The notes under the pieces are model-generated. The model was not told the DNA's origin, made no database searches, and worked only from the letters and a program-made list of their open reading frames with translations. Both the position numbers and the translations under genes were made by a program. Source: Anaerocolumna aminovalerica (GTDB lineage: Bacteria; Bacillota; Clostridia; Lachnospirales; Lachnospiraceae). From it: a stretch of 64,000 bases of DNA. Of the stretch, positions 35,421-63,606 are shown one piece after another (the stretch's first letter is position 1; each line of letters opens with the position of its first letter). The DNA is taken from contig NZ_FOWD01000017.1 of assembly GCF_900115365.1 (NCBI RefSeq), positions 1 to 64,000 on the forward strand. The letters run 5' to 3'.

Positions 35421-35461
35421 GTCATAGAAGGATGCTCTTACTTATAAGGAGAATTAGATTT

Positions 35462-37127: not shown

Positions 37128-37131
37128 TTCA

Positions 37132-39727: not shown

Positions 39728-39739
39728 TCTGGTGAGTAT

Positions 39740-43046: not shown

Positions 43047-43116
43047 TTAATTTTTCAAAATATTTAATTATTACCTCTATTGCATCCATTCTGATTAGGA
43101 GAGGATATGATACAAA

Positions 43117-44295: not shown

Positions 44296-44549
44296 AGAAA
44301 AAGCATCTTCCCACTTGGAAGAACTCCAACATGAGAATTCATAGGAATTCTCACGTTGAACTTCTTCTCTATTATTTGAGATGTCGCGAAGCGACAACAA
44401 TATGGAAGTGTGAAGGAAAAGCATCTTCCCACTTGGAAGAACTCCAACATGAGAATCCATTGGAATTCTCACGTTGAACTTCTTCTCTATTATTTAGATG
44501 TCGCGAAGCGACAACAATATGGAAGTGTGAAGGAAAAGCTTCCCACTTA
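44287..44549 (+). repeat. Tandem structured repeat: 118 bp, 117 bp and a 28-bp partial copy
   Basis: Unit 1 (44287-44404) and unit 2 (44405-44521) are near identical; a third copy starts at 44522 and stops after about 28 bp. Each unit holds a long hairpin with TGAGAATTC / GAATTCTCA at its tip and CAAC/GTTG and GAAGAA/TTCTTC below, followed by a second hairpin TGTCGC-GAA-GCGACA. Open frames across it are by-products of the repeats. A related hairpin with swapped base pairs occurs at 46881. It fills the gap between a glycosyltransferase and the polymerase gene. Confidence 0.85.
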
Positions 44550-44607
44550 AAGTTTATGTCAGATAGAATCAGGGCAGTTTGATTCTGCCTGGCTTGGAGG
44601 ACTGAAT

Positions 44608-45843: not shown

Positions 45844-45881
45844 AAACTGATTAAAAGCCATAAAAAAGAAGCGAGATCATT

Positions 45882-46862: not shown

Positions 46863-46880
46863 TAGCAGGGACAGATTTGA

Positions 46881-47030
46881 GATGTGGCAAAGCCACATCA
46901 TGCGGGGAAGGTTGCAAGAAAATAAAGTATAGAAAGAATGCCACATCATAATTCTTTCAACTTGATCTTTTGTGGCGGTATCACATCTGCAAACAGAGTA
47001 CCACATTTGCAAACGGTTGTGATACGCAAT
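46881..47030 (+). repeat. Structured intergenic region with hairpins and a direct repeat
   Basis: It holds the hairpin GATGTGGC-AAA-GCCACATC (46881-46899), then GCCACA/TGTGGC (46940 and 46971), then GTATCACA/TGTGATAC (46978 and 47018). Inside the last pair are CACATCTGCAAAC (46982) and CACATTTGCAAAC (47002), a direct repeat of period 20. The first hairpin matches the second hairpin of the repeat at 44287 with a compensatory base-pair swap. The last stem ends 14 nt before the next start codon. Confidence 0.7.
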
Positions 47031-47039
47031 GGGTGTATA

Positions 47040-48185
47040 ATGAAAAAAATTGGAATAATTACCCTAAATGGTTATTTTAATTACGGAAACCGCTTACAAA
47101 ATTATGCTTTACAAGAAGTATTAAAATCTTTGGGTTTTCAAGTGGAAACCATATTAGTTGATACAACAAATCAATCTGAAAATACATCTCCGATTCCTAT
47201 GAGGAATAGAATATTTTTTAAAAATAGAAAGAAAAAAGATATGGAACTTTCTGAAGTGCTTTACAAGATTATTACAATATTGTGGAATCAAATTCATAAG
47301 AAGGAAATCGTAAAGTCCAGAATGCAGCGGATAAAACGATTGAAAGCTTTTTCAAATAAGTATATTAAAGAAACGAAATTTTGTATATCCAGTGAAAATA
47401 TACCGGAGAATTTAGCACACTGTTATGATTATTTTGTTGCTGGGAGTGACCAGGTATGGAATCCGGACTATATTCATAATTCATCCATTTATTTTTTAAC
47501 CTTTGCTCCCGGGAAGAAAAGAATTGCTTATTCCCCTAGCTTTGGTATCTCTCATATTCCCACTGAATATTCAGAAGCTTATAAACTATGGCTTTCTGAA
47601 ATGGCCAGCTTATCTGTAAGAGAAGAGGCCGGAGCAGATATTATAAGAAATTTAACAGGGAGGGAGGCTGAGGTTCTTATTGACCCCACTCTTTTATTAA
47701 CAAAAGAAAATTGGCTTTTAATATCTAAGGAACCTGTCTATAAACCGAAAAGGTGCTATCTGTTAACCTACTTTTTGGGAGAACAAACACTGGATAGAAA
47801 GAAAAAAATAAAAGAAATAGCAAGGGCGAATAGTTTAATTGTAGTGAATCTAGCAGATATGAAGGATCCAAAAAGATATTCGGCTGATCCCGGCGAATTT
47901 ATTGGGTATATACAATCTTCCAGTGTTATTTTTACAGATTCTTTTCATGGATGTGTATTTGCCATTTTATTTGAAAAACCATTTGTTGTATTTGACAGAA
48001 TTGGGACCGGGACTTCCATGAATTCCAGAATCGATACGCTTCTTGGTACATTCCGGTTACAAACAAGGAAATGGGAGGTTTTAAGAAAGGATGAAATTTT
48101 TCAATTAGATTATTCACAGACTGCGCCTATTTTAGAAAATGAACGTAACAAAGCAATTAATTATCTAAAAGGTACATTAAGTTAA
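47040..48185 (+). CDS. Polysaccharide pyruvyl transferase family protein (381 aa)
   Basis: Matches the PS_pyruv_trans family, GT-B-like enzymes that add ketal pyruvate from PEP to a sugar. The opening KKIGIITLNGYFNYGNRLQN and the later FVAGSDQVWNPDY, LSVREEAGADI and TDSFHGCVFAILFEKPFV are the family blocks. The start at 47040 fits the family; an open frame from 46938 runs through the structured non-coding region and is not credible. The ribosome site (GGGTG) is weak and lies near a stem that could hide it. Confidence 0.88.
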   Translation: MKKIGIITLNGYFNYGNRLQNYALQEVLKSLGFQVETILVDTTNQSENTSPIPMRNRIFFKNRKKKDMELSEVLYKIITILWNQIHKKEIVKSRMQRIKRLKAFSNKYIKETKFCISSENIPENLAHCYDYFVAGSDQVWNPDYIHNSSIYFLTFAPGKKRIAYSPSFGISHIPTEYSEAYKLWLSEMASLSVREEAGADIIRNLTGREAEVLIDPTLLLTKENWLLISKEPVYKPKRCYLLTYFLGEQTLDRKKKIKEIARANSLIVVNLADMKDPKRYSADPGEFIGYIQSSSVIFTDSFHGCVFAILFEKPFVVFDRIGTGTSMNSRIDTLLGTFRLQTRKWEVLRKDEIFQLDYSQTAPILENERNKAINYLKGTLS

Positions 48186-48238
48186 TAAAGATCAAATTTT
48201 ATATTTAATATGAAAAGTTCTATGAAAGTGGTATCAAT

Positions 48239-50983
48239 ATGGGGAGAATCGAAAATGCAGAACGGAATATTTTCTTTGGTATCTTAGGAAATATTGTATC
48301 CTTTATCCTGGGATTTATATCAAGGACAGTCTTTATTCACAACCTGAGTGTAACCTATCTTGGTGTCAATGGCTTATATACGAATATATTATCTGTATTA
48401 TCATTAGCAGAACTTGGTATTGGTACAGCAATGAATTATAGTCTCTATAAACCTGTAGCAGAAAATAATTATGAGACCATAAAGACACTGATGCAGTTAT
48501 ATAAAAAGATTTATCGTATTATTGCCATAATTATAACAGTGGCAGGATTAATTCTGCTGCCCTTTTTAAAATTCATCATAAAAGACCCAGGAAACATCAG
48601 TCAAAATGAATTGTTCCTATATTATTTCATATTTTTGTTCAACACAGTCAGTACCTATTTTGTATCATATAAATACAGTTTAGTAAATGCAGAGCAAAAG
48701 AATTATATACAATCTAATATTCAAGTCATTACTTCAGTGGCTGTATTAATATCACAGATTATTATCCTGAAAATATTTAAAAGCTTTATGCTCTATTTAA
48801 TTGCTGGAGCGGTTATTGGAGTGATACAAAAAGTATTCGTTCATTTATATTTGAATAAGCAATATCCCTATCTTTTAGAAAAAGATTATATTCCTTTATC
48901 CAAAGAAGAAATGAAACCCATTAAAAAAAACATGACCGCTTTAATGTATCATAAATTTGGAGATGTTATGATACATCAAACGGATAATATTATTCTTTCT
49001 TCATTTGTTAATGTAACTTTTGTTGGATTATTATCCAATTATAATCTGATTATTTTTTCGGTAATTAGCTTTATTAATATAATTTTTAATTCTCTGATCT
49101 CTGGGTTCGGCAATTTGATTGCATTAGACAGTAAGGAAAAGCAATACAAATTATTTAAAGTTTATCGTTTTTCTGCTTTCTGGATCTATGGAATGGTCCT
49201 GATTATTTTATATTTTATGCTGACTCCCTTTATTACCCTTTGGATTGGAGAAGATATGGTTATTAGTAATACAGCAATACTATTAATTATGGTGGACTAC
49301 TATTTTAAAGCCCATCGTATTGCGGTAAATAATTATAAAACAGCAGCTGGTATTTTTGATGCGGATAAATACATTGCTCTGATTCAAGGGATTGTAAACT
49401 TAATTATTTCCATACTGCTGGTTCAATTAATTGGAATAAATGGCGTATTTATTGGAACTATAGTATCCGGTTTAATTTCTAATTTTACCAGGCCTTTTAT
49501 TATATATAATATGATATTTAATAAAAAAGCCCATGAATATTACAAGGATTCCTTTCTTTACCTTATTACCATCATCATGGTGTTTTTTATCTGCCAATTA
49601 GTAAGGAAATCATTTTGTAATAACATAACACCAGTAAGCCTTTTTGTTTTATTTATACTGGTAATTACAATACCAAATTTGTCTTTTTTCATCTTGTTTC
49701 GTAAACGGGAGGAATTCGTATATATGCAGGAAATTTTAAAATCCTATCCAGATAAGTTTAATAATATTAATAAATTCTATTCCAATACTCTCTTAAAGGC
49801 CGGAAATAAGATAAGATTCATTAAGAATAAAAAGACAGTTTACGTTAAAAAGGATATTACGGATAAAAGTGAAGAGGCTCCATTATCCTCTGATTCTAAC
49901 AAGATAGAAGAAGAGTGGATTGCTATATTCAACAATCTGCGTAAAAACACAAGAATTCAGATTCTAACTTATCCGGAGATTAGTACGAAGCAGATGATAA
50001 GAACTAATATCTACAGTATTATTTTCACAAGGAAGCTGACCAGAGCAGATCATTTTTTCTGGCCCAATGGACTTTTAGCTTCGGCTTTAGAATGCTCTTA
50101 CCATGCAAGCAAGGATATTCAGGACTTTTATATACTGAAACAATACTATGATAAATGGATTCAAAATGGTATTCCTATTGTAAATCCTGATCATGCCATA
50201 AATGGTTATTCCTTAATTTATGTACATCAAAAAATGAAAAAAGATATTTACAAAGAAGCCATTCAAAAAATTATCAATTATTTATATGATTATCCAAGAG
50301 ATAAAAAGAATAGTTTTCCCTATAGAAAAAACAGTCCTAATGATATTTATATCGATAGTATAGGCATGATATGTCCTTTCTTATGCCGTTATGGAAAAAT
50401 ATATCATGATGAAAAGGCTATAAATTTAGCTGTAAAACAGATTATCAATTTTATTCATTTTGGATTTGATAGGAATACATTTCTTCCATATCATGGGTAC
50501 AATTTAAAAGAAGACAGCAAATTAGGAATCATTGGATGGGGCAGAGGAGTAGGATGGTTATTGATAGGCATGGTAGACAGCCTTGAATATATTGATTCCA
50601 TGAACCCCAACTATAATTTTTTAGTTAGAACTTTTATTAAAGTTGTTGAAACCACTATAAAGTATCAGAAGGATAATGGGTACTACTCCTGGCAGTTAAC
50701 AGCTTTAGAGGGACACATTGATACATCATCAACTTCCATGATATCTTATGCCATTCATAGGGGAGTTAAAATAGGTATACTGAATAAAACTTATTTATAT
50801 TATTCGAATTTAGGGCTTCAGGCTCTTCGGAATTCTGTAATAGATGGTCTGGTAACCAATTCTTCAGCAGAATGTATGGGATTTAGCATGTACCCTCAAA
50901 GATATGATGTATTTCCATGGTCTCAAGGTCCAACCACTGCGTTAGCAGCTTTATCGCTGGATGCAATTAGAAATAATGAATAA
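48239..50983 (+). CDS. Polysaccharide flippase fused to GH105/GH88-like domain (914 aa)
   Basis: Residues about 1-500 are a Wzx/PST-type flippase with 12-14 helices that moves lipid-linked repeat units across the membrane; YLGVNGLYTNILSVLSLAEL near residue 40 is characteristic. After a charged linker (about 505-560), residues 565-914 form a predicted (alpha/alpha)6 barrel like unsaturated-uronyl hydrolases (GH88/GH105). It keeps YIDSIGMICPFLCRYG, with D706 as candidate catalytic Asp, and GWGRGVGWLLIGMVD near 766. I know of no such fusion. The frame is continuous, with no sign of a frameshift. By topology the C-terminal domain should be cytosolic. Confidence 0.85.
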   Translation: MGRIENAERNIFFGILGNIVSFILGFISRTVFIHNLSVTYLGVNGLYTNILSVLSLAELGIGTAMNYSLYKPVAENNYETIKTLMQLYKKIYRIIAIIITVAGLILLPFLKFIIKDPGNISQNELFLYYFIFLFNTVSTYFVSYKYSLVNAEQKNYIQSNIQVITSVAVLISQIIILKIFKSFMLYLIAGAVIGVIQKVFVHLYLNKQYPYLLEKDYIPLSKEEMKPIKKNMTALMYHKFGDVMIHQTDNIILSSFVNVTFVGLLSNYNLIIFSVISFINIIFNSLISGFGNLIALDSKEKQYKLFKVYRFSAFWIYGMVLIILYFMLTPFITLWIGEDMVISNTAILLIMVDYYFKAHRIAVNNYKTAAGIFDADKYIALIQGIVNLIISILLVQLIGINGVFIGTIVSGLISNFTRPFIIYNMIFNKKAHEYYKDSFLYLITIIMVFFICQLVRKSFCNNITPVSLFVLFILVITIPNLSFFILFRKREEFVYMQEILKSYPDKFNNINKFYSNTLLKAGNKIRFIKNKKTVYVKKDITDKSEEAPLSSDSNKIEEEWIAIFNNLRKNTRIQILTYPEISTKQMIRTNIYSIIFTRKLTRADHFFWPNGLLASALECSYHASKDIQDFYILKQYYDKWIQNGIPIVNPDHAINGYSLIYVHQKMKKDIYKEAIQKIINYLYDYPRDKKNSFPYRKNSPNDIYIDSIGMICPFLCRYGKIYHDEKAINLAVKQIINFIHFGFDRNTFLPYHGYNLKEDSKLGIIGWGRGVGWLLIGMVDSLEYIDSMNPNYNFLVRTFIKVVETTIKYQKDNGYYSWQLTALEGHIDTSSTSMISYAIHRGVKIGILNKTYLYYSNLGLQALRNSVIDGLVTNSSAECMGFSMYPQRYDVFPWSQGPTTALAALSLDAIRNNE

Positions 50984-51050
50984 CAGAACCTTTTTCTGTA
51001 GTTGGAAGGATTTTAAAAAATAAGAACGTATTCTTGCAAAACATGTAATC

Positions 51051-51089
51051 AGGCCGCCTTTCCTCTGTAAATTGAAATGCGGCCTTTAT
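51051..51089 (+). terminator. Hairpin terminator after the flippase gene
   Basis: AGGCCGC (51051-51057) and GCGGCCT (51079-51085) form a 7-bp GC-rich stem followed by TTATA. The T-run is short. It lies between the convergent flippase gene and the small membrane protein gene and may serve both. Confidence 0.65.
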
Positions 51090-51112
51090 ACCGGATAAAA
51101 CTATGATTCACT

Positions 51113-51439
51113 CTATTTGCGTTTTTTAAAGATATGACAGATATGAAAAATCCTGTATAGAGTACCAGACATTATTGCAAGCAGGATACCGATAAATATG
51201 CTCAAAAGACCATACCTTCTAGTAAAACTTAAACAATTAAAGCTCGTAAGAAGAGCTGTCATGGTATAAATACCTTTGAAAAAATACAATCCCGTAATAT
51301 TGATTAAAAAAATAAATAAATCAAATATTAAAGCAGTTGTTATCCGGGGTTCTCCATCTACACATCCTATTTTTCCATATACCTTAGCTGCAATTAATCC
51401 AGGAACTAACATTATTAAAAAGAATCTGATAAAGTCCAT
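51113..51439 (-). CDS. Small membrane protein of unknown function (108 aa)
   Basis: A minus-strand gene for a protein with about three hydrophobic segments (residues 5-20, 35-60 and 75-97) and a basic C-terminus (FKKRK). AAAGGAG lies about 8 nt before the ATG. I recognise no family. It is the only reverse gene in the polysaccharide locus, so it is transcribed on its own. Confidence 0.7.
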   Translation of the reverse strand: MDFIRFFLIMLVPGLIAAKVYGKIGCVDGEPRITTALIFDLFIFLINITGLYFFKGIYTMTALLTSFNCLSFTRRYGLLSIFIGILLAIMSGTLYRIFHICHIFKKRK

Positions 51440-51767
51440 AATTCGTCTCCTTTCATTATAAAATCAGGTAAAACTTCAATTCGGGTGTATTTTGAACTGA
51501 ATTGGAATTTATTTAAACTTATCTTTTGAGGCAGCAGCCATTAATAACCATTATCCAAATGGTAGTATTATGACTAACTGACATCTGATAAAAAGTTATA
51601 TTATTATATTATGAAACAAACCTATAAAATGTTACAAAAAATGTCGTAAAAGTAAAAAACAAAAAGAATAATATATAATAGTGTCACCCTATACCTTAAA
51701 TTTCTTTGTTCTACTTAATTATAAAATTCATACAATAAAAAGATAGAGGCTTTAAATAGGAGTAAAA
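51440..51767. other. Gene-free stretch before capE
   Basis: About 330 bp of AT-rich DNA separating the main polysaccharide operon from the CapE-F-G genes. A TATAAT occurs at 51674-51679 but no convincing -35 box sits 16-18 nt upstream, so the capE promoter is only tentatively here. No repeats or open frames with a ribosome site were seen. Confidence 0.45.
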
Positions 51768-52790
51768 ATGTTTAAAGATAAAAAGCTTTTGATAACAGGG
51801 GGTACTGGCAGTTTTGGAAACGCTGTGCTGAAACGATTTTTAGATACAGAAATTGATCAGATCCGAATATTTTCAAGAGACGAAAAAAAACAGGATGAGA
51901 TGCGAAACCTTTATAAAAATAATAAAGTGAAATTTTACATCGGCGATGTCAGGGATATACAATCCATAAAAAATGCCATGTACGGCGTTGATTATATTTT
52001 CCATGCTGCTGCTTTAAAACAAGTTCCATCCTGTGAGTTCTTTCCACTAGAGGCTGTAAAGACAAATGTTTTAGGAACGGATAACGTTTTAACTTCAGCC
52101 ATAGAATTTGGAGTAAAGAAAGTAATTTGTCTGTCTACGGATAAAGCCGCTTATCCGATTAATGCAATGGGGATTTCCAAAGCCATGATGGAAAAGGTAT
52201 TTATATCAAAATCCAAGACGGTGGACCCGGACAGGACAACAATCTGCGGTACCCGTTATGGAAATGTAATGGCTTCCAGGGGCTCCGTCATTCCGCTTTT
52301 TATACAACAAATTAAAGCTGGAAAACCCTTAACGGTTACAAATCCTGACATGACCCGGTTTTTAATGAGCCTTGAAGAGGCTGTGGAATTAGTAATCTAT
52401 GCATTTTTAAATGGAGAATCAGGGGACCTTATGGTACAGAAATCACCTGCCTCCTCAATAGGGGATCTGGCACAGGCATTAATCCAATTATTTGGCAGTG
52501 ATAGCAAGCTAAATATTATAGGTACCCGCCATGGAGAAAAGTTATATGAAACCCTGTTAACAAAAGAAGAATATTTTGCAGCTCAGGATAAAGGGAAATT
52601 TTATCGTGTACCTGCAGACAAGCGGGACTTGAATTATGATAAATATTATCACCAGGGAAGCAAAATACTTTCTGATTACAAAGAATACAACTCCAATAAT
52701 ACAGAAAGATTAAATATAGAACAGATTAAAGAACTTCTATTAACTATTGACTATGTCCAGAAGGAATTAAAAGGCGGGTGTCATGAATGA
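51768..52790 (+). CDS. capE: UDP-GlcNAc 4,6-dehydratase/5-epimerase, CapE-like (340 aa)
   Basis: First enzyme of UDP-N-acetyl-L-fucosamine synthesis, an SDR acting on UDP-GlcNAc. The NAD motif TGGTGSFGNAVLKRF is near residue 10 and the active-site run STDKAAYPINAMGISKAMME has Met in place of Tyr, as expected. Length suits the soluble CapE/WbjB group rather than the membrane-anchored group. ATAGGAG precedes the ATG by 6 nt. It overlaps capF by 4 nt (ATGA). Confidence 0.92.
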   Translation: MFKDKKLLITGGTGSFGNAVLKRFLDTEIDQIRIFSRDEKKQDEMRNLYKNNKVKFYIGDVRDIQSIKNAMYGVDYIFHAAALKQVPSCEFFPLEAVKTNVLGTDNVLTSAIEFGVKKVICLSTDKAAYPINAMGISKAMMEKVFISKSKTVDPDRTTICGTRYGNVMASRGSVIPLFIQQIKAGKPLTVTNPDMTRFLMSLEEAVELVIYAFLNGESGDLMVQKSPASSIGDLAQALIQLFGSDSKLNIIGTRHGEKLYETLLTKEEYFAAQDKGKFYRVPADKRDLNYDKYYHQGSKILSDYKEYNSNNTERLNIEQIKELLLTIDYVQKELKGGCHE

Positions 52791-53896
52791 AGATATTAGT
52801 AACAGGAGCAAGAGGATTTATCGGAGAAAATTTAATCGCCCAGTTAAGAAATTTAAATTATACGGACATCTTAATGTTTGATAAAAATACAAAACTCTCT
52901 TTGTTAGACCAATATTGTGAGGAAGCTGAATTTGTATATCATCTTGCAGGAGTGAATCGCCCTAATGAGGACAGGGAATATATGGAGGGGAATTTAGGAT
53001 TTACGAAGGTTCTTTTGGATGCCTTAGAAAAACATAAAAATAATTGCCCGGTTACCATATCATCCTCCATACAGGCTGTTTTTGATAATCCATATGGAAT
53101 AAGTAAAAAAGCAGGGGAAGATGCGGTATTTAATTATTCCAGAGAGACAGGGGCGAAAGTTTTTGTATACCGGCTGCCAAATGTATTCGGAAAATGGTGC
53201 AGGCCCAACTATAATAGTTTTATAGCAACCCTTGCTCATAATATTGCCAGAGATTTACCTGTTACGGTCAAAGATCCGGAAACAGTCTTAAATCTGGCTT
53301 ATATTGATGATGTTGTAGAAGAATTAATAAGTCTGTTAAAGGATAAAGGCAATAAGAAAGGTGATTTTTGTGAAATACCTGTAGTATATCAAATTACACT
53401 GAAAGAAGTGGTAAATTTACTTAGGTCTTTTAAGGATAGCCGTATTAACTGTTCCATTCCTGATATGTCTGAGGATTTTACCAGAAAACTATACAGTACT
53501 TACTTAAGTTATCTGCCGGAGAACAATCTTACTTATCCCTTAAAAATGAATGCAGATCATAGAGGGTCTTTTACTGAGTTCATTAAAACCGCAGGACAGG
53601 GACAAATTTCAGTAAATGTATCCAAGCCTGGAATGATAAAAGGAAACCATTGGCATCACACAAAAAATGAAAAATTTCTTGTAGTCAGCGGAAGAGGTGT
53701 AATACGGTTTCGAAAACTGAATTCAGACCGGGTGATAGAATACTATGTAAGCGGAGACAAACTGGAAGTAGTTGATATACCGGTAGGCTATATCCACCAT
53801 ATTGAAAATATTGGTGAAACAGATATGGTGACCATTATATGGGCAAATGAAAGTTTTAATCCCCGGAAACCGGATACTTACTTTATGGAGTTATAG
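52787..53896 (+). CDS. capF: UDP-2-acetamido-2,6-dideoxy-hexulose reductase/epimerase, CapF-like (369 aa)
   Basis: Second enzyme of the UDP-L-FucNAc pathway, with an N-terminal SDR (about residues 1-245, TGARGFIGENL) and a C-terminal cupin (about 255-369). The cupin has GMIKGNHWHHTKNEKFLVV, including metal-binding His residues, and is thought to epimerise at C3 before the SDR reduces C4. Both domains are intact. The gene starts inside the end of capE. Confidence 0.92.
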   Translation: MKILVTGARGFIGENLIAQLRNLNYTDILMFDKNTKLSLLDQYCEEAEFVYHLAGVNRPNEDREYMEGNLGFTKVLLDALEKHKNNCPVTISSSIQAVFDNPYGISKKAGEDAVFNYSRETGAKVFVYRLPNVFGKWCRPNYNSFIATLAHNIARDLPVTVKDPETVLNLAYIDDVVEELISLLKDKGNKKGDFCEIPVVYQITLKEVVNLLRSFKDSRINCSIPDMSEDFTRKLYSTYLSYLPENNLTYPLKMNADHRGSFTEFIKTAGQGQISVNVSKPGMIKGNHWHHTKNEKFLVVSGRGVIRFRKLNSDRVIEYYVSGDKLEVVDIPVGYIHHIENIGETDMVTIIWANESFNPRKPDTYFMEL

Positions 53897-53957
53897 AATA
53901 GAAGTCATGTTTAAAGAATCTTTTATTGATCTTTAATTAGAAAAACAGGGAGCAGAA

Positions 53958-55091
53958 ATGAAAAAATTAAAAGTAATGACAGTTGTTGGAACCCGCCCGG
54001 AAATAATAAGATTATCAGCGGTTATTCAAAAATTACAAAAATCAGATGCCATAGAACACATCCTGGTACATACTGGACAGAATTACGATTATGAATTAAA
54101 TGATATATTCTTTAAGGATTTTATGTTAAAGAGGCCGGATTATTTTTTGGGAGCTGCTACCAGTTCGGCTGTGGAAACAATCGGAAATATACTCATTAAA
54201 ATAGAACCTATTTTAGATGAAAGAAAACCGGATGCATTTTTAATACTTGGAGACACCAATAGCTGCTTGTCGGCAATAGCTGCAAAGAGAAGGCATATTC
54301 CCATATTTCACATGGAGGCTGGTAATCGTTGCTTTGACCAAAGGGTACCTGAAGAAACAAACAGAAAGATTGTTGACCATATATCCGATATTAACCTGCC
54401 TTATAGTGATATAGCAAGGGAATATTTATTAAATGAAGGAATTCCGGCAGATCGGATTATTAAGACAGGGAGCCCCATGTTTGAAGTTTTACATTCTGGA
54501 AAAGAAGGAATTAAGAATTCAGAAATATTAAAAAAATTAAATCTTAAAATGGGAGAATATTTTTTAATATCTGCACACAGAGAAGAAAATATAAACATAG
54601 AAGAAAATTTCAGAAACTTAATAGACAGTATCAATGCTATTGGCGAAATTTATAATATTCCAATCATTATTAGTACACATCCCAGAACTAAAAAGAAAAT
54701 TTATGAAGATAATATAGAATTAAATTCTTATGTTAAAATTATGAAGCCTTTTGGATTCTATGACTATGTTAATCTTCAGGTAAATGCAAAATCTGTATTA
54801 AGCGACAGTGGTACAATCAGTGAAGAATCCTCTATTCTTGGATTTAAGGCTCTTAATATCAGACAGTCTCATGAAAGACCAGAAGCCATGGAAGAGGCAG
54901 CTGTAATTATGACAGGCCTTACAAAAGAAAGAATCCTTCAGGGACTTACCATATTAGAACACCAGCAAAAAAATTCATTGAGAATCGTAAGGGATTATAG
55001 TATGGAAAATGTTTCAGATAAAGTACTCAGAATTATTTTATCCTATACCAACTATGTAAACAGGGTAGTATGGGGGAGTAAGGACGTTTAA
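53958..55091 (+). CDS. capG: UDP-N-acetylglucosamine 2-epimerase family, CapG-like (377 aa)
   Basis: Third enzyme of the pathway, a GT-B-fold 2-epimerase giving UDP-L-FucNAc. It has VVGTRPEIIRLSAVIQKL at the start, GDTNSCLSA, HMEAGNRCFDQRVPEETNR and SAHREENI, all typical of the WecB/CapG group. CapG rather than WecB is inferred from the adjoining capE and capF genes. GGGAG lies a few bases before the ATG. No clear terminator follows before the lytS promoter. Confidence 0.9.
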   Translation: MKKLKVMTVVGTRPEIIRLSAVIQKLQKSDAIEHILVHTGQNYDYELNDIFFKDFMLKRPDYFLGAATSSAVETIGNILIKIEPILDERKPDAFLILGDTNSCLSAIAAKRRHIPIFHMEAGNRCFDQRVPEETNRKIVDHISDINLPYSDIAREYLLNEGIPADRIIKTGSPMFEVLHSGKEGIKNSEILKKLNLKMGEYFLISAHREENINIEENFRNLIDSINAIGEIYNIPIIISTHPRTKKKIYEDNIELNSYVKIMKPFGFYDYVNLQVNAKSVLSDSGTISEESSILGFKALNIRQSHERPEAMEEAAVIMTGLTKERILQGLTILEHQQKNSLRIVRDYSMENVSDKVLRIILSYTNYVNRVVWGSKDV

Positions 55092-55150: not shown

Positions 55151-55179
55151 TTGATTTTTCAACATTTTTAAGCTATTAT
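55151..55179 (+). promoter_or_regulatory. Sigma-A-type promoter of the lytS leader
   Basis: TTGATT (55151-55156) and TATTAT (55174-55179) are 17 nt apart. The sequence directly after the -10 box, GTAATAAATT, is the same as after the V-ATPase promoter at 59891. The conserved leader starts 40 nt further on. Confidence 0.7.
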
Positions 55180-55218: not shown

Positions 55219-55300
55219 TTTTTTCCGGTTGGCAGTTTTATCTGTTTCAAGTTTTGAGCTTTAGGGTGGAGAGCTCCTATGGAGTTCCCTGCCTTTTTTT
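55219..55300 (+). ncRNA. Riboswitch-like leader, copy A (lytS); candidate Na+-I (DUF1646) class
   Basis: TTTTTTCCGGTTGGCA (55219-55234) and a 33-nt block (55243-55275) are identical to copy B at 59961. Between them is a variable hairpin, CAG/CTG here and CAATTA/TAATTG in copy B. The 3' end of the block (GGTGGAGAGCT) also forms the 5' arm of a terminator: a stem of about 14 bp over 55264-55294, loop TAT, followed by seven T. Since GGAGAG can instead pair with TTTTCC at the block's 5' end, ligand binding should favour read-through. The class is inferred from copy B's gene. Confidence 0.75.
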
Positions 55301-55359
55301 ATTGTAGAAATATAAAAAGATATCAGGGTAGTGGTATACCTGTTATGAGGAGAATGTGT

Positions 55360-57081
55360 GTGGAAGTTATAAAAAGTATTGTATTGAATATAGGACTGCT
55401 TGTTATTCTGGCTCAAATTTTAGCAAGGGTGAAATTGGTTAAAAAGTATATTGTTAGGGAAAAACACAAAACAAAAGAATATATTATACTAATTGCTATT
55501 TTTGGGATCATCAGTGTTATTTCAACCTATACAGGTTATGGGGTGAATGGGGCTATTGCTAATACTCGTGTTATTGGTGTTATGGCAGGAGGATTTATTG
55601 GAGGGCCGATTGTTGGCATTGGTGCAGCTATAATTGGAAGTATCCATAGATATATAATAGATATTAATGGTTTTACTGCTTTTGCCTGTGCAATCTCAAC
55701 ATTGGCAGAAGGAATCATTAGTGCAGTTACTGCCAAATATGTTAAAAAGAATAAGTATAAAAGTTCCGATTTATTTGCTATTACTTTTTTTGCCGAGCTG
55801 TTGCAGATGATTATTATTTTAATATTTGCCAAACCTTATCAGGAAGCTGTTACCTTGGTAAGAGTGATTGCAGTTCCTATGGTATTTTTTAACTCTATGG
55901 GTATGGTATTGTTTGTAAGTGTTTTTAATCATATTTTTAAAGAAATGGAATATGAGGTGGGAAGTAAAGTAAATCTTATATTTGAAATAACTAAAAAATG
56001 TCTGCCACTTTTACAGTCGGGTATTTACAATAAGGAGAATTGCAGTAAAATCAGCGATGTGATTTTAGAATATTCCAAAGACTTAGCTGTTATTTTTACA
56101 GATAAAGAAAATATTATCTGTGTAAAAGGAAAAACTTTAAATTGTATAGGACTAAACCGCTTTTTGCCAGGCCTTGCCAATGAGGTTCTAACTAAGAAGA
56201 AAGTGTGTATTGCTGAACAGGTACCTGAAGAAGATGTATTATACAAATCTTTGGAAAAAATGGTTGCTATAGGTGCACCGTTAATGAAATACGGACAACC
56301 TTTTGGATGTCTAATTATATTTGCAAATAAATTTAAAATTTCTTACCATTCGGAGGTTCAGTTTGCAGAAGGGTTAAGTAAATTATTCTCTGTACAGTTT
56401 GAACTTTCGGAAATGGAAAAGCAGCAGGCACTTTTACAGAAAGCAGAATTTAAAGCCTTACAGACACAGATTAATCCTCATTTTATATTTAACTCCCTAA
56501 ATACAATCAGTGCTTTCTGCAGAGAAAAACCGGATAAAGCAAGGGAACTTTTAATTGCCCTTGCTACCTATTTTAGAAATTCCATACAAACAAAAGATGG
56601 ATTTGTAAGTATTTATGATGAAATGGATTATGTTATGGCTTATTTACAGCTTGAAAAAGCAAGGTTTGATGAGCGGTTGAATATCATTATTGATATGCCG
56701 GAAGATATTGATTGTAAAATGCCCTGTCTGATTTTACAGCCTATTGTAGAGAATGCAATTAAACATGGTGCTATGAAGAAGAAACAGGGAGAAGTTAAAA
56801 TTACAATTAAGGAAGCAGATAAAGCAATTAAAATTTCAGTAATGGATAATGGGTTAGGAATTCCACAGAATGTGGTACATGGGTTAAAGTATAACACCAT
56901 TGACAATGGCAGAATCGGACTAATAAATGTACAAAAAAGATTATGTTATATTTATGGAGAAAATAATGGCTTGGATATTGATACATCAACCAATGGCACT
57001 ATAGTTAGCATAACCATACCGAAAGATATTTCGAATAAACTGGAACCAAAAAATTTGCCTGCCTATAAGAATGTAGTTTAA
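55360..57081 (+). CDS. LytS-family sensor histidine kinase, 5TM-LYT type (573 aa)
   Basis: A membrane sensor kinase. Residues about 1-190 form the 5TM-5TMR_LYT domain, with GAIANTRVIGVMAGGFIGGP typical of it. A GAF-like region (about 205-345) leads to the His_kinase domain with INPHFIFNSLNTI, whose His is phosphorylated, and an ATPase domain with LQPIVENAIKHG. The start is set at GTG 55360, 7 nt after AGGAGA; ATGs at 55345 and 55354 overlap that ribosome site. Relatives such as LytS, BtsS and YpdA respond to pyruvate or cell-wall signals. The partner regulator follows by 49 nt. Confidence 0.88.
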   Translation: MEVIKSIVLNIGLLVILAQILARVKLVKKYIVREKHKTKEYIILIAIFGIISVISTYTGYGVNGAIANTRVIGVMAGGFIGGPIVGIGAAIIGSIHRYIIDINGFTAFACAISTLAEGIISAVTAKYVKKNKYKSSDLFAITFFAELLQMIIILIFAKPYQEAVTLVRVIAVPMVFFNSMGMVLFVSVFNHIFKEMEYEVGSKVNLIFEITKKCLPLLQSGIYNKENCSKISDVILEYSKDLAVIFTDKENIICVKGKTLNCIGLNRFLPGLANEVLTKKKVCIAEQVPEEDVLYKSLEKMVAIGAPLMKYGQPFGCLIIFANKFKISYHSEVQFAEGLSKLFSVQFELSEMEKQQALLQKAEFKALQTQINPHFIFNSLNTISAFCREKPDKARELLIALATYFRNSIQTKDGFVSIYDEMDYVMAYLQLEKARFDERLNIIIDMPEDIDCKMPCLILQPIVENAIKHGAMKKKQGEVKITIKEADKAIKISVMDNGLGIPQNVVHGLKYNTIDNGRIGLINVQKRLCYIYGENNGLDIDTSTNGTIVSITIPKDISNKLEPKNLPAYKNVV

Positions 57082-57130
57082 GTCCTGTAATTTTATTCAT
57101 ATAATAATTTTAAGAATTGGAGATAAAGCT

Positions 57131-57853
57131 ATGAGAATAGGAATCATTGATGACGAAAAACCTGCAAGAAGTGAATTAATGTACCTTATTAAGGAAATAG
57201 TGCCAAATGCGGTAATACAGGAAATGGAAAGCGGAGAAGAAGCTTTGAAACTCATTGCCGCAGAACGGTTTGATTTACTTTGTATCGACATTAATTTAGG
57301 GGATATAAGCGGTATCTCTCTTGCTGCGGCGGCTCGTAAATTAATTCCGGAAGTAGAAATTGTATTTGCAACAGCTTACAATAACTATGCGGATAAAGCT
57401 TTTGAAGTAGATGCGTTGTACTATTTATTAAAACCTTTTTCAGAAGAAAAAGTTAAGCAGATGTTAGATAAATATATTCAAAAACATGGGAAGTGCTGCC
57501 ATGACTACAATAATCTGTATATATCCAAAATTCCTTTAAATGTGGATAAAAGGATTCTCTTAGTTGAGGTTCCATCTATTGTTTACATTGAATCTCAAAA
57601 CAGGGTCTGTATCATTCACACGAAAGAAAAAAGCTACAAAGATAATAATCCTCTGAATTACTTTGAAGAAAAACTGGGAGATAAGGGTTTCTTCCGAATA
57701 CAGAAAAGTTATTTAATTAATCTGAATTATGTTTTGGAGATATATCCCTGGTTTAGTAACACATACTGTGTGAAAATGGAAGGCTTTAAAGATGAGGTTT
57801 TACCAATCAGCAGGAACCAAATCAAAAATTTGAAGAATATTCTTTGCATTTGA
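57131..57853 (+). CDS. LytTR-type response regulator (240 aa)
   Basis: Partner of the LytS-like kinase. The receiver domain (residues 1-120) has the acidic pair in GIIDDEKPAR and the phospho-acceptor Asp in LLCIDINLGDISG. The C-terminal LytTR DNA-binding domain (about 135-238) has IVYIESQNRVCII and FFRIQKSYLINLNYV. GGAG lies about 8 nt before the ATG. It likely activates the CstA-type gene that follows, as LytS/LytR-like pairs do for pyruvate or peptide carriers. Confidence 0.92.
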   Translation: MRIGIIDDEKPARSELMYLIKEIVPNAVIQEMESGEEALKLIAAERFDLLCIDINLGDISGISLAAAARKLIPEVEIVFATAYNNYADKAFEVDALYYLLKPFSEEKVKQMLDKYIQKHGKCCHDYNNLYISKIPLNVDKRILLVEVPSIVYIESQNRVCIIHTKEKSYKDNNPLNYFEEKLGDKGFFRIQKSYLINLNYVLEIYPWFSNTYCVKMEGFKDEVLPISRNQIKNLKNILCI

Positions 57854-58044
57854 TGCACTGATTTTAACATGTCACCCCTGAATTTATACAAGATACACAA
57901 TATCCAAAGTAATAATTAAAAAAATATGATAAAATTTACATAGAAATAAAGAAAGTGTAAAAAATATTACATTTTCATTAAGTCATTCAACGTTAAAAAT
58001 GTTGTTTGATAAAGGTTTTTTTGTACATTTTACATAAAGGAGGA

Positions 58045-58116
58045 ATGGTGGATATTGTTAGTGTTTTTAGAAGTCCAAAAGATGTACTTTTAAAAATTAA
58101 TTTATTCAGGAGGTAG
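58045..58116 (+). CDS. Possible 23-aa leader peptide upstream of cstA
   Basis: A short frame starting ATGGTG right after AAGGAGGA encodes MVDIVSVFRSPKDVLLKINL followed by Phe-Arg-Arg. Its two final Arg codons, AGGAGG, are the ribosome site of cstA, and its stop lies 2 nt before the cstA start. Translation of the leader would thus block or deliver ribosomes at cstA. The ATG is too close to the ribosome site; the GTG one codon later is better placed. Chance is not excluded. Confidence 0.3.
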   Translation: MVDIVSVFRSPKDVLLKINLFRR

Positions 58117-58118
58117 CT

Positions 58119-59603
58119 ATGATAATATTTTTAATTGGACTAGTGATTTTAATAGTTGGGGGAGCAATTTACGGAAAGTTCTGTGAAAAGGTTTTTGGAC
58201 CAGACGACAGAGATACGCCGGCAACTACATTGGCAGATGGTGTTGATTATGTAGCAATGAAGCCTTGGAAAAACAAATTAATTGAACTTTTAAACATCGC
58301 AGGAACAGGGCCAATCCTTGGACCGATTCAAGGTATTTTATTTGGGCCTATTGCCTTTATTACGATTCCTGTTGGATGTGTTCTTGCAGGTGCACTTCAT
58401 GACTATTTTGTAGGTATGATTTCTATGCGTAACAGCGGTGCACAAATTCCTAAAATGATGTACAAGTTCATGGGAAACGGAGCAACAAAAATCTATACCG
58501 TTATCATCTGGATATTAATGTTGCTTACCGGTGTTGTATTTATCTATACACCTGGTGACTTAATCGTCGGAGATATAATGGGAATGGATGTTAAGGGCAA
58601 TGTAATCTGGATTGTATACGCAGTAATTTTACTTTACTATGTCATTTCTACAATCTTTCCTATTGACCAAATTATTGGCCGTATCTATCCAATCTTTGGT
58701 GCAGTATTGATTATATCTGCTATTGGTGTTTTTGTTGGTGTTATGCTTGACGGCGGTGCAAACATGCCGGCATTAAACAGTGGATTGTTAACACAGCATC
58801 CAAAGGGACAATCCTTCATTCCGGTATTCTTTATAACAGTGGCATGTGGTATTATGTCAGGTTTTCATGGAAGCCAGGCAACACTTATATCTAGAACTGT
58901 AAAACATGAAAAAGAAGGGCGTCATACATTCTATACTATGATGCTTGTAGAAGGTGCCATTGCTATGATCTGGGCAGCAGGTGCCATGGTTCTATTCGGA
59001 AGAGGAACTGATACGGTAACCGGAGCCACTCAGATGGTAGGTATTATCTCCAGAGAATTTATGGGAACAATTGGCGGATTATTTGCAATTGCCGGGGTTA
59101 TCGTTCTTCCGATTACTTCTGGCGATACAGCATTTAGAGCTTTACGTTTAATGATTGCGGAACAATTTAATATCGATCAAAAAGATGCTAAAAAACGTGT
59201 TGGATTATCCTTAATTATATTTATTCCGGCTATATTAATTCTCATTTATGCAAAAAGTTCTCCCGGTGGATTTAATTTACTATGGAGATATTTCGGATTT
59301 ACCAACCAACTTGTGGCAGTATTTGCTCTTGCAATGATTGTGGTGTATTTAAAAACTGCCGGCAGAAATTACTTAATTGCTTTACTGCCGGGAACTTTTT
59401 ATACATTTATCGTATTTAGTTATATATTCCATGAAAAAATTGGTTTCGGCTTAGAAGCTAGAATTGGTGAAATGTTTGGTATTGCAGACACCAGTTATGC
59501 TATTTCATATACTTTAGGTGCAATATGTGCAGTGCTATTCTTATGGCTAGTACCAAAATTAGCTTCTAAGAGAAAAGACATTATTCTAAACTATAAAATG
59601 TAA
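58119..59603 (+). CDS. cstA: Carbon starvation CstA-family transporter (494 aa)
   Basis: An integral membrane carrier of the CstA/BtsT family, which takes up pyruvate or peptides. About 13 helices are predicted. Family blocks are GTGPILGPIQGILFGPIAF near residue 65, FHGSQATLISRT near 250 and LPITSGDTAFRALRLM near 330. It is shorter than E. coli CstA (about 700 aa), as usual for clostridial members. AGGAGG lies 5 nt before the ATG. It follows the LytS/LytR-type genes, which probably control it. Confidence 0.93.
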   Translation: MIIFLIGLVILIVGGAIYGKFCEKVFGPDDRDTPATTLADGVDYVAMKPWKNKLIELLNIAGTGPILGPIQGILFGPIAFITIPVGCVLAGALHDYFVGMISMRNSGAQIPKMMYKFMGNGATKIYTVIIWILMLLTGVVFIYTPGDLIVGDIMGMDVKGNVIWIVYAVILLYYVISTIFPIDQIIGRIYPIFGAVLIISAIGVFVGVMLDGGANMPALNSGLLTQHPKGQSFIPVFFITVACGIMSGFHGSQATLISRTVKHEKEGRHTFYTMMLVEGAIAMIWAAGAMVLFGRGTDTVTGATQMVGIISREFMGTIGGLFAIAGVIVLPITSGDTAFRALRLMIAEQFNIDQKDAKKRVGLSLIIFIPAILILIYAKSSPGGFNLLWRYFGFTNQLVAVFALAMIVVYLKTAGRNYLIALLPGTFYTFIVFSYIFHEKIGFGLEARIGEMFGIADTSYAISYTLGAICAVLFLWLVPKLASKRKDIILNYKM

Positions 59604-59700
59604 CTATAATTTGAAGAGGGGTATTATAGTTATCATAAAAGAGTAAATGAAAATGAATTACATACAATAATAATCTCCTTTTGATAAAACTTGTAAAACG

Positions 59701-59750
59701 AAGCAGCTGTTACTTTGACCAATATTTGTCTAAGTAGCAGCTGCTTTACT
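59701..59750 (+). terminator. Intrinsic terminator of cstA
   Basis: AAGCAGCTG (59701-59709) and CAGCTGCTT (59738-59746) form a 9-bp stem, extended inward by TACTT/AAGTA with a one-base bulge. TTACT follows. Confidence 0.75.
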
Positions 59751-59890
59751 CAATATACAGTAAAGTAGAACTTAATTTTTCACAATGAATTCTGTGTAAT
59801 TTTAATAATTATTATGAGTTTTATAAGTTAAATCTTTGATAAAATGAATAAAATTAGGCATAATTTATTATGAAAATTAAGGAAGCGTTC

Positions 59891-59919
59891 TTGACTTTTT
59901 GATATTATAAAATTATAAT
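59891..59919 (+). promoter_or_regulatory. Sigma-A-type promoter of the V-ATPase operon
   Basis: TTGACT (59891-59896) and a perfect TATAAT (59914-59919) are 17 nt apart. The downstream GTAATAAATT matches the lytS transcript start region. Confidence 0.8.
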
Positions 59920-59960
59920 GGTAATAAATTGTTTATGACAGATTTATTGAATATTGGAAC

Positions 59961-60048
59961 TTTTTTCCGGTTGGCAATTATTATTAATTGTTTCAAGTTT
60001 TGAGCTTTAGGGTGGAGAGCTTAGTTAAAGTTTTGCGCTCTTTTTTTG
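59961..60048 (+). ncRNA. Riboswitch-like leader, copy B (V-ATPase); candidate Na+-I (DUF1646) class
   Basis: Blocks at 59961-59976 and 59989-60021 are identical to copy A (55219). The hairpin between them is longer here, CAATTA-TTAT-TAATTG, so the stem is kept while its sequence changes. The 3' end GGAGAGC (60014-60020) pairs with GCTCTTT (60037-60043) to make a terminator followed by more T. An open frame that starts within this leader (59988) is a by-product. The V-ATPase downstream has Na+ ligands in subunit K, which makes Na+ the leading ligand candidate. No covariance search could be run. Confidence 0.78.
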
Positions 60049-60077: not shown

Positions 60078-60404
60078 ATGGCAAAAGAAGCTGTAGAGTT
60101 AGTTAAACAAGCTGAAGAGGAAGCAAAAGCACTTTTGGAGCAGTCCCGTATATATTCAGAAAAAGCTTTAGATGAAGCTAAAGTTTCTGCAAAAGAAAAA
60201 TATAAGCAAATCCTTTATGATGCAAAAACAGAAGCAGAGAATATAAAAAAGAAAGCGGAAGAAGATGCTCAGTCAAAGGCTCAGCCAACTATTTTAAAAG
60301 GCAAAGAAAATGCAGATGCTATTAGGAATATGGATGAAAAAGAATTAACTTCAGCTATAAACATTGTTATTGAGAGGATTGTGAAAACAAATGGCAATAG
60401 TTAA
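60078..60404 (+). CDS. V-type ATPase peripheral-stalk subunit, H/G-like (108 aa)
   Basis: A short, highly charged, mostly helical protein starting MAKEAVELVKQAEEEAKALL. The long Ala/Glu/Lys coiled coil (about residues 5-80) fits the small stalk subunit (NtpF/AhaH-like) that pairs with subunit E. The C-terminus INIVIERIVKT is typical. The start at 60078 has AAAGGAGG 7 nt upstream. It is the first gene of the V-ATPase operon and overlaps ntpI by 14 nt. Confidence 0.85.
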   Translation: MAKEAVELVKQAEEEAKALLEQSRIYSEKALDEAKVSAKEKYKQILYDAKTEAENIKKKAEEDAQSKAQPTILKGKENADAIRNMDEKELTSAINIVIERIVKTNGNS

Positions 60405-62340
60405 AATGAATCGGTTTAGCCTCTTTGTCTTTGAATCAGATAAAGAAAATCTTCTTCATGAACTCCAAAAATTTAACTATGTTCATTTTCTGGATTTAAA
60501 AGAAAATACAGATTATGTGGAAATGGGATTGGAAAATGCAAAAGTTCCTGAAAACATTGTCCGGTTAAATGAAGAGATTACAAAGGTAAAGTATGGTCTT
60601 GAGAAGTTATCCAAATATGACACCAGAGCAACCGGATTAAAAGCTATGAAGGAAGGAAAGGAAGTTCTAGAGTTTACAGAATTGGAAGAGAGAGCTGAAA
60701 ATTTTAATTATCAGCCTATCTATGAAAAACTGAAAGAAATTGGTTCCTCCTTGGATGCTATTAAGAGCGAAAAGGAAAAACTAAATTCTACTATGAATGA
60801 ACTAAGACCATGGGCTGGTTTAGACGTAGCTGTCAGTGAACTCGGTTCCACGAAACAATGCATAACCTTAATGGGAACTATACCTAGAAATACCAGGGAC
60901 AGTATGGAAAAAGAACTGCTGGAATCCCAGTATACCTATTATGAGGTAATTGGAGAAGAAAAGGGTTATATCTATATTCTTGTTATTTCCGCAAAGGAAG
61001 AAGCGGATCAGGTAATGGAAATCCTTAGAAATCATAGCTTTACAGAAACAAGGTTAGGTATAGGGGATATACCGAACAAAGAGATGGATGTCATTCTAAA
61101 CAGGATAAGTGAATTAAAAGAGGAAGAAAGTAATTGTGAAAAGCAGCTGACTGAACTAGGCAAATATCTGCCCAACCTGGAATTGCTATATGATTACTAC
61201 ATGAATAACAAGTTAAGAATTGCTTCCTCAGAAAATTTTTTAATGGCTGGGAATGTGAATATTATTGAAGGATATGTCCCGGCAGACATGATAAATGAAT
61301 TCACGGATATTGTAAAAAAGAATTTAAATAATGTTTATTTTATGGAAATAAAAGAAGCGGATAAAGAGGATGAAGAAGTACCTATATTATTGAAAAATTC
61401 CACTTTTTCCAAACCATATGAGTCATTAACTACCATGTACGCACTTCCAAAGTATAATGAAATTGATCCGACACCTTTATTTACGCCGTTTTATATATTC
61501 TTTTTTGGTATGATGATAGCAGATATGGGATATGGATTATTATTGGCACTGGGTACCGGAATTGCTCTTAAAACCTTTAATCTTTCCAAGGAGCAAAGAA
61601 AGAATATGCTATTTTATTTTTATGGTAGTATAGCAACAATTTTCTGGGGCGCTATATATGGTTCTTTCTTTGGAGGTATTATACCTCTACCTGCACTGAT
61701 TGATGTTGCAGTGGAATATAATCGTTTGCTTATTATCTCTATTGCGTTTGGTATTCTTCATATATTCATAGCATTAGGAATTCATGCATATCTGAATATA
61801 CGAGATGGAAAGATCTTAGATGCACTGTATGATGTAGGCTTTTGGTATATGGCACTGATAGGTGCAATACTTCTCCTGTTAACAACAACCGGTATTTTAT
61901 ACGGTGGTATCAAGAATGTAGCTGCCGTAATTATGGCTATAGGTATGATTGGAATTGTATTAACAGGAGGCAGAAGTTCTGAAAGTATAGGCGGTAAAAT
62001 TGGAGGGGGACTTTATAGTCTATATGGAATCTCCAGCTATGTAGGGGATTTTGTATCTTATTCCAGATTAATGGCTCTTGGCCTGTCCGGAGCATTTATC
62101 GCCTCTGCAATTAATATGATGGCTAAAATGCTATTTGATATGGGTATTTTTGGAATCATCGGGGGAATCGTAGTATTTGCAGTTGGACATTCCTTTAACG
62201 TTTTCTTAAGCGTACTTAGTGGATATGTTCATTCCATCCGTCTTACCTATGTAGAGTTTTTTGGTAAATTCTACGAAGGGGGAGGAAAGGCATTTAAATT
62301 ACTACAAAGTAAGCCTAAATATACTAATTTAAAAGAGTAA
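60391..62340 (+). CDS. ntpI: V-type ATPase subunit I (649 aa)
   Basis: The membrane stator subunit that forms the ion half-channels against the K ring. The N-terminal 335 residues are cytosolic and coiled; the C-terminal part has about seven helices, starting with PTPLFTPFYIFFFGMMIADM. The segment GDFVSYSRLMALGLSGAFIA and the later HSIRLTYVEFFGKFYEGGGK contain the conserved basic residues of the half-channel region. It starts within the end of the previous gene. A 190-nt gap follows before ntpK. Confidence 0.95.
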   Translation: MAIVKMNRFSLFVFESDKENLLHELQKFNYVHFLDLKENTDYVEMGLENAKVPENIVRLNEEITKVKYGLEKLSKYDTRATGLKAMKEGKEVLEFTELEERAENFNYQPIYEKLKEIGSSLDAIKSEKEKLNSTMNELRPWAGLDVAVSELGSTKQCITLMGTIPRNTRDSMEKELLESQYTYYEVIGEEKGYIYILVISAKEEADQVMEILRNHSFTETRLGIGDIPNKEMDVILNRISELKEEESNCEKQLTELGKYLPNLELLYDYYMNNKLRIASSENFLMAGNVNIIEGYVPADMINEFTDIVKKNLNNVYFMEIKEADKEDEEVPILLKNSTFSKPYESLTTMYALPKYNEIDPTPLFTPFYIFFFGMMIADMGYGLLLALGTGIALKTFNLSKEQRKNMLFYFYGSIATIFWGAIYGSFFGGIIPLPALIDVAVEYNRLLIISIAFGILHIFIALGIHAYLNIRDGKILDALYDVGFWYMALIGAILLLLTTTGILYGGIKNVAAVIMAIGMIGIVLTGGRSSESIGGKIGGGLYSLYGISSYVGDFVSYSRLMALGLSGAFIASAINMMAKMLFDMGIFGIIGGIVVFAVGHSFNVFLSVLSGYVHSIRLTYVEFFGKFYEGGGKAFKLLQSKPKYTNLKE

Positions 62341-62520: not shown

Positions 62521-63012
<492 letters not shown>

Positions 63013-63045: not shown

Positions 63046-63606
63046 ATGTCAAATTTAGATAATCTGATCCAAAAGATAAAATTGGATGCACAGTCTCATG
63101 CAGAAGAAAAGAAGAAAGAGGCTGATAAGAAAAAAGAAGAAATAGTGAATGGACAAGTTAAGCTGGCACTGGAAGAGAAGGCTAAAATAATAGAAAAAGC
63201 GGAAAAAGAAGCTGAAATTATAAAAAGCCGGATCCTTTCCAATGCTGATTTAAGGGTAAGAGATGAAATGCTAAAAGCAAAACAGGAAGTGATAGATAAA
63301 GTATTCCTGTTAGCGAAAGAAAGACTAATGAATCTGGATGATAAGGAATATGTGGAATTTGTAAAGAATCAAATCAGTACTATAGAATTAACCGGTGAGG
63401 AAACAATAATTGTACCAAGTAATCGAAGAGATTTAATCAAAAATCTTGGATTAAATCTGAAAGTGTCTGAGGAAGAAACCATTGATTCCGGATTTACCAT
63501 TGTGAATAATAAGGTAAGACTTAATTTTTCTTTTGAAACCCTTATTGATTTTTTAAGAGAGGATTTAGAAACAGAAATAGCGCAAGTATTATTCAAAGAA
63601 GAATAG
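63046..63606 (+). CDS. ntpE: V-type ATPase subunit E (186 aa)
   Basis: Peripheral-stalk subunit. Residues 1-90 are a long Lys/Glu-rich coiled coil (AEKEAEIIKSRILSNADLRV), and the C-terminal globular part (about 95-186) has VDSGFTI-like IDSGFTIVNNKVRLNFSFE, the usual end of subunit E that contacts the catalytic head. The order K then E then C matches clostridial V-ATPase operons. A GGATGTG ribosome site precedes the ATG. Confidence 0.93.
   Translation: MSNLDNLIQKIKLDAQSHAEEKKKEADKKKEEIVNGQVKLALEEKAKIIEKAEKEAEIIKSRILSNADLRVRDEMLKAKQEVIDKVFLLAKERLMNLDDKEYVEFVKNQISTIELTGEETIIVPSNRRDLIKNLGLNLKVSEEETIDSGFTIVNNKVRLNFSFETLIDFLREDLETEIAQVLFKEE

What the first reader, a model, noticed from the sequence alone, without database searches (positions are those of the whole stretch)
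55219..60048. Twin riboswitch-like leaders in front of lytS and the V-ATPase operon
Two leaders 4.7 kb apart share identical blocks of 16 nt and 33 nt, and their promoters share the same start-site sequence (GTAATAAATT). The variable hairpin between the blocks keeps pairing while its bases change (CAG/CTG versus CAATTA/TAATTG). Each conserved 3' end doubles as the 5' arm of an intrinsic terminator, and the two terminators differ in sequence. This is the design of a transcription-terminating ON riboswitch. A Na+-type V-ATPase behind copy B points to the Na+-I (DUF1646) class. Copy A would put a LytS/LytR/CstA system under the same signal, which is unexpected.
Basis: partly seen in the sequence, partly recalled or inferred. 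Interest (0 to 1): 0.85.

Follow-up and report, generated by a model that had tools for sequence, protein, structure and literature searches.

The report
Sodium riboswitch controlling a pyruvate-sensor operon
Two RNA switches of a known sodium-sensing class sit 4.7 kb apart in an Anaerocolumna-like bacterium: one in its usual place before a sodium-type V-ATPase operon, the other before a probable pyruvate-sensing and uptake operon (lytS-lytR-cstA), a pairing seen in no other genome checked, which suggests that this bacterium has tied pyruvate sensing to its internal sodium level.

Summary
Leaders A (55219-55300, before lytS) and B (59961-60047, before the V-ATPase genes) share exact 16- and 33-nt blocks, against at most 15 nt in shuffles. 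Each has a promoter, a two-helix aptamer and an intrinsic terminator that uses the aptamer's 3' arm. Both match Rfam RF03071 (Na+-I / DUF1646 riboswitch): B over the curated cut-off (44.0 vs 40.5 bits), A just below it (38.2 bits, E 1.8e-5) because its P1 stem is shorter. The published platform of this class is the same: Na+ stabilises P2, blocks the terminator and turns the gene on. The V-ATPase link is already published. The lytS link is not in the class paper's main text, and I found no second case: about 80 Na+-I loci from roughly 1,480 genomes include one lytS, this one, and 22 lytS relatives show no switch. A is not a fresh copy of B; it is at least as close to oadB leaders of other species. 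It lies at the edge of a 29-kb polysaccharide cluster absent between gdhA and lytS in the nearest relative, so A was probably gained in this lineage. LytS keeps all four pyruvate-binding residues of E. coli BtsS. Na+ binding and switching here are inferred.

The parts
55151..55179 (+). Promoter A, TTGATT-17-TATTAT, followed by AGTAATAAATT
   Evidence: consensus match and likeness to promoter B
55227..55275 (+). Na+-I aptamer A (P1 with short upper stem; P2 with GGGUG loop)
   Evidence: RF03071 38.2 bits, E 1.8e-5, all 55 model positions; just under the cut-off of 40.5
55263..55300 (+). Intrinsic terminator A (14 pairs, -17.9 kcal/mol) with U7 tract; its 5' arm is the P2 loop and 3' arm of the aptamer
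55360..57081 (+). lytS: LytS/BtsS-type sensor kinase; keeps the pyruvate-site residues of BtsS (R72, R99, C110, S113)
   Evidence: Pfam 5TM-5TMR_LYT, His_kinase; alignment with E. coli BtsS; start codon and RBS conserved in the relative
57131..57853 (+). lytR: LytTR-type response regulator
   Evidence: Pfam Response_reg and LytTR
58119..59603 (+). cstA: CstA-family transporter, 494 aa
   Evidence: Pfam CstA 7.5e-46; no solved homologue found by sequence
59891..59919 (+). Promoter B, TTGACT-17-TATAAT, followed by GGTAATAAATT
   Evidence: 11 of 12 matches
59969..60021 (+). Na+-I aptamer B
   Evidence: RF03071 44.0 bits, over the cut-off of 40.5
60009..60047 (+). Intrinsic terminator B (13 pairs, -13.8 kcal/mol) with U tract
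60078..60404 (+). V-ATPase peripheral-stalk (NtpH/AhaH-like) gene, first gene of the operon
   Evidence: NCBIfam AhaH 1.9e-6, below curated cut-off; position
60391..62340 (+). ntpI, V-type ATP synthase subunit I
   Evidence: NCBIfam 2.9e-125, below curated cut-off; Pfam V_ATPase_I
62533..63012 (+). ntpK rotor subunit, Na+-type
   Evidence: NCBIfam over cut-off; aligned to Enterococcus hirae Na+ rotor 2bl2 with [14 protein letters not shown] and VETYA kept
63046..63606 (+). ntpE, V-ATPase subunit E
   Evidence: Pfam vATP-synt_E
25986..55091 (+). Polysaccharide cluster lying between gdhA and leader A here; absent between gdhA and lytS in the nearest relative

Best explanation
Both leaders are Na+-I riboswitches that act by transcription termination. 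Without Na+ the P2 3' arm pairs downstream and RNA polymerase stops at the U run. With millimolar Na+ the P1 base and P2 loop hold the ion, P2 stays formed, the terminator cannot form and transcription continues. Leader B switches on the Na+-type V-ATPase, its usual role. Leader A switches on lytS-lytR, and cstA by read-through or through LytR. A pyruvate-sensing two-component system and its transporter would then be made only when cell Na+ is high, so cstA would need Na+ inside and, if LytS senses pyruvate like BtsS, pyruvate outside. Leader A was probably acquired in this lineage, from an oadB-type Na+-I leader, when the gdhA-lytS junction was rearranged. Shown here: family membership of the RNAs, anatomy, gene order, absence in relatives. 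Inferred: Na+ binding, switching, the pyruvate ligand, the origin of A.
For: RF03071 matches over the full model length in both leaders and nowhere else comparable in the genome. The conserved positions that White et al. mutated to abolish the Na+ response (AA at the P1 base, GG in the P2 loop) lie in segments present in both. The terminator overlap is as published for the class. Within the genus, other Na+-I leaders sit before Na+ genes (oadB, Na+/Ca2+ exchanger, other V-ATPases) with the same promoter-aptamer-terminator layout. NtpK keeps the E. hirae Na+ rotor segments. LytS keeps all four pyruvate residues. The lytS-lytR-cstA order recurs in at least 11 of 20 fetched relatives in the family, as expected for a BtsSR/transporter unit. 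Leader A keeps aptamer and terminator intact although its terminator 3' arm differs from B's.
Against: Leader A alone is below the Rfam gathering score. Pair counts on a MAFFT alignment of 16 genus leaders did not beat shuffles clearly (83.2% paired, 57 of 500 shuffles as high), although P1 is misaligned there. No Na+ response has been measured. The sister species has the same operon without any Na+-I leader, so Na+ control is not essential to the system. Why high Na+ should favour pyruvate sensing is unclear.
Confidence: 0.83

Rival explanations
1. Leader A is an evolutionary passenger: a Na+-I leader left at the edge of a rearranged block, which now drives lytS by accident and gives no selected Na+ control.
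For: Only this genome has it; the nearest relative and some twenty others show none. It lies exactly where a 29-kb polysaccharide cluster separates gdhA from lytS.
Against: Promoter, aptamer and terminator are all intact; A has diverged from every other leader (at most 92% identity) while its P1 and terminator still pair. It is the only evident promoter just upstream of lytS.
Confidence: 0.25
2. Leader A is a recent copy of leader B made by local duplication 4.7 kb away.
For: Identical 16- and 33-nt blocks and like promoters.
Against: Over about 70 nt A is 92% identical to oadB leaders L011 and L012 of other species and 85% to B; most of the 33-nt block recurs in other species' leaders. Sequence between promoter and aptamer is unrelated. 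These are short sequences, so an older duplication is not excluded.
Confidence: 0.12
3. Leader A has changed ligand (for example Li+ or K+) and does not sense Na+.
For: Below the Rfam cut-off; White et al. leave variant specificities open.
Against: The loss of score is in the variable P1 upper stem; the conserved segments are identical to B. The Li+ classes (nhaA-I, nhaA-II) are other motifs, and no other family matched at E up to 1.
Confidence: 0.04

Closest known systems
Na+-I riboswitch (DUF1646 motif, Rfam RF03071; White et al. 2022, PMC9337991)
   Same: Aptamer sequence and structure, terminator overlapping P2, ON logic, association with V-ATPase genes (copy B).
   Different: Copy A has a shorter P1 and precedes lytS-lytR-cstA, genes not named in that paper's main text (its supplement and figure labels could not be read).
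BtsS/BtsR-BtsT pyruvate system of E. coli
   Same: LytS-type kinase with the same four pyruvate residues, LytTR regulator, CstA-family transporter.
   Different: One gene cluster here, a 494-aa CstA-family protein, and an RNA switch in front; btsSR and btsT lie at separate loci.
Tandem Na+ / c-di-AMP riboswitch gate (Dehalobacter ablA; PMC9337991)
   Same: Two signals combined on one output.
   Different: There two RNAs in tandem; here, by inference, one RNA and one two-component system.

Membership tests
Na+-I riboswitch (RF03071), copy B | Covariance model score over the curated threshold | tested here: met
   44.0 vs 40.5 bits
Na+-I riboswitch (RF03071), copy A | Covariance model score over the curated threshold | tested here: not met
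   38.2 vs 40.5 bits, E 1.8e-5, full model length. The threshold is a curation cut-off, not a property of the RNA; I call A a probable member because its conserved core is identical to B's
Na+-I riboswitch, both copies | Conserved P1 base and P2 loop nucleotides | tested here: met
   GGUUGG, UUUCAAG and GGGUG match the consensus in both
Na+-I riboswitch, both copies | Expression platform in which the terminator competes with P2 | tested here: met
   folds; design as in PMC9337991
Na+-I riboswitch, both copies | Selective Na+ binding and Na+-dependent read-through | not testable with these tools
   needs in-line probing and transcription assays
Na+-I riboswitch, copy A | Adjacent gene linked to Na+ transport or osmotic stress | tested here: inconclusive
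   lytS-lytR-cstA; CstA ion coupling unknown
BtsS-type pyruvate sensor | Arg72, Arg99, Cys110, Ser113 (BtsS numbering) | tested here: met
   all four identical (window R70, R97, C110, S113)
BtsS-type pyruvate sensor | Pyruvate binding and induction of the transporter gene | not testable with these tools
   binding and reporter assays needed
Na+-type V-ATPase rotor (E. hirae NtpK) | Na+-site segments of the K subunit | tested here: met
   [19 protein letters not shown] conserved in alignment with 2bl2

The most novel reading that the evidence does not exclude
A selected AND gate: an RNA measures cytosolic Na+ and the kinase it controls measures external pyruvate, so that uptake by CstA needs both. 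This would imply that pyruvate use, and perhaps the CstA protein itself, is Na+-coupled in this lineage.
Probability: 0.35. Interest if true: 0.6.

Novelty: new member of a known kind. Interest (0 to 1): 0.42.

Why it matters
Riboswitch positions are good pointers to gene function. A Na+ riboswitch before a LytS/LytR/CstA operon would add a carbon-sensing two-component system to the genes known to follow cell Na+, and would make a Na+-coupled CstA a testable idea. It also looks like a case of a riboswitch being moved to a new gene within a genus, with a near relative lacking it for comparison.

Tried and rejected
Looked for other Na+-I sites in the genome: only weak chance-like matches, up to 20.6 bits. 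Tested whether A came from this genome's own oadB genes: two oadB-type genes exist, neither with a Na+-I leader. Tried to read leader B of the nearest relative: it falls in an assembly gap (contig C207 ends 0.3 kb after cstA; C109 starts within ntpI). A close-relative scan of genome contigs for LytS gave one locus only, that relative. MAFFT pair counts on P1 were not informative. The region between lytR and cstA was aligned for operator sites without a clear LytTR repeat. No paper found links LytS with Na+ riboswitches. Structure prediction was not run: too few permitted relatives of CstA for a useful model.

Full report
Setting. The window is contig C42 of a 4.62-Mb genome (G000). Its nearest held relative is a MAG named uncultured Anaerocolumna, which the genome search places in the same genus, so the organism is taken as Anaerocolumna (Lachnospiraceae).

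Observation. Both leaders are as described. The 16-nt and 33-nt blocks are exact (55219/59961 and 55243/59989); shuffled leaders share at most 15 nt. Promoters, P1 pairing with different bases, and two terminators with a common 5' arm and different 3' arms are present.

Identity. A scan of the whole window against Rfam 15 gave two hits over threshold: a c-di-GMP-II riboswitch at 13717-13800, which is unrelated, and RF03071 (Sodium, DUF1646) at 59969-60021 with 44.0 bits (cut-off 40.5). A laxer scan of the region gave only RF03071, at both leaders, A with 38.2 bits and E 1.8e-5. The alignments show that A and B have the same core and that A loses score in a shorter upper P1. In the whole genome nothing else exceeds 20.6 bits.

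Mechanism. White et al. [quoted passage not shown] Both leaders here have that layout: the terminator stem starts in the P2 loop and uses the P2 3' arm (A: 55263-55295, -17.9 kcal/mol; B: 60009-60041, -13.8 kcal/mol). Na+ binding and switching of these two RNAs are inferred from family membership, not measured.

Genes behind B. They are V-ATPase subunits. The K subunit aligns to the E. hirae Na+ rotor (2bl2) with the segments [14 protein letters not shown] and VETYA kept. V-ATPase operons of enterococci and clostridia with Na+-I leaders are published, so copy B is ordinary.

Genes behind A. LytS has the 5TM-LYT, His_kinase and HATPase domains, LytR is a LytTR regulator, CstA is a 494-aa member of Pfam CstA. 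LytS is 33% identical to E. coli BtsS and has all four residues shown to make its pyruvate site (Arg72, Arg99, Cys110, Ser113). A pyruvate sensor with its transporter is therefore the best reading, by homology. The likely start is GTG 55360, with the ribosome site AGGAG conserved in the relative. No second promoter was evident between the terminator and lytS, so lytS expression would depend on leader A. The lytR-cstA gap of 265 nt may hold a separate LytR-controlled promoter; this was not shown.

How unusual is A? RF03071 was searched in the genus (15 genomes) and in samples of family, order, class and phylum (397, 392, 391 and 398 genomes, some drawn more than once; roughly 1,480 distinct by handle). 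First downstream ORFs of 70 loci were scanned: OAD_beta 12, DUF1646 11, Na_Ca_ex 6, Na_H_antiport_1 5, others mostly of the known kinds, and LYT-type kinase 1, the window itself. tblastn of LytS, LytR and CstA against all these Na+-I loci found only the window. In the other direction, 20 LytS relatives in the family plus the two nearest (L040, L034) carry no Na+-I match upstream where upstream sequence is held. The 20 were tested at the gathering threshold and with a motif pattern that copy A fits; L124 and a few others hold little upstream sequence. At least 11 of the 20 have cstA behind lytS-lytR.

Origin. In the nearest relative (LytS 88% identical) gdhA is followed directly by lytS, with about 520 nt between; here a polysaccharide cluster of 29 kb (25986-55091; Wzz, Polysacc_synt_2, glycosyltransferases, epimerases) lies between gdhA and leader A. 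Alignable sequence restarts at the lytS ribosome site. L034 (LytS 69% identical) also lacks the switch. A gain in this lineage is the simplest reading, but three genomes are few. A is 92% identical to oadB leaders of two other species and 85% to B over about 70 nt, so it is not a fresh copy of B; the stretches are too short for a firm tree. The genome's own oadB-type genes have no Na+-I leader.

Limits. A is formally below the Rfam threshold. The covariation counts on a plain alignment were weak. The supplement and figure labels of the class paper could not be read, so an earlier listing of lytS among rare associations is possible. The genome sample is large but not complete.

Noticed in passing
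L137 3637-3992 (minus strand; genome G1286): Three Na+-I aptamers in tandem, about 150 nt apart (49.1, 48.1 and 33.5 bits), upstream of a gene that looks like diaminopimelate dehydrogenase (by eye). A triple sodium switch could give a steeper response.
   Followed up: partly
window 13717-13800: c-di-GMP-II riboswitch over the Rfam cut-off (58.7 bits).
   Followed up: no
window 25986-55091: Polysaccharide biosynthesis cluster of 29 kb inserted (or lost in the relative) between gdhA and lytS.
   Followed up: partly
L008 1501-3056 (genome G004): A strong Na+-I riboswitch (60 bits) is followed closely by a reverse-transcriptase gene, perhaps of a group II intron that landed just behind the terminator.
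   Followed up: no
L081 1501-3052: A Na+-I riboswitch is followed by an RNase J-like gene, an unusual association for this class.
   Followed up: no
L040 10500-10622: The relative's contig ends in short tandem repeats (AAAAAGTCATTCTGATAA) just behind cstA, where its V-ATPase leader is expected.
   Followed up: no
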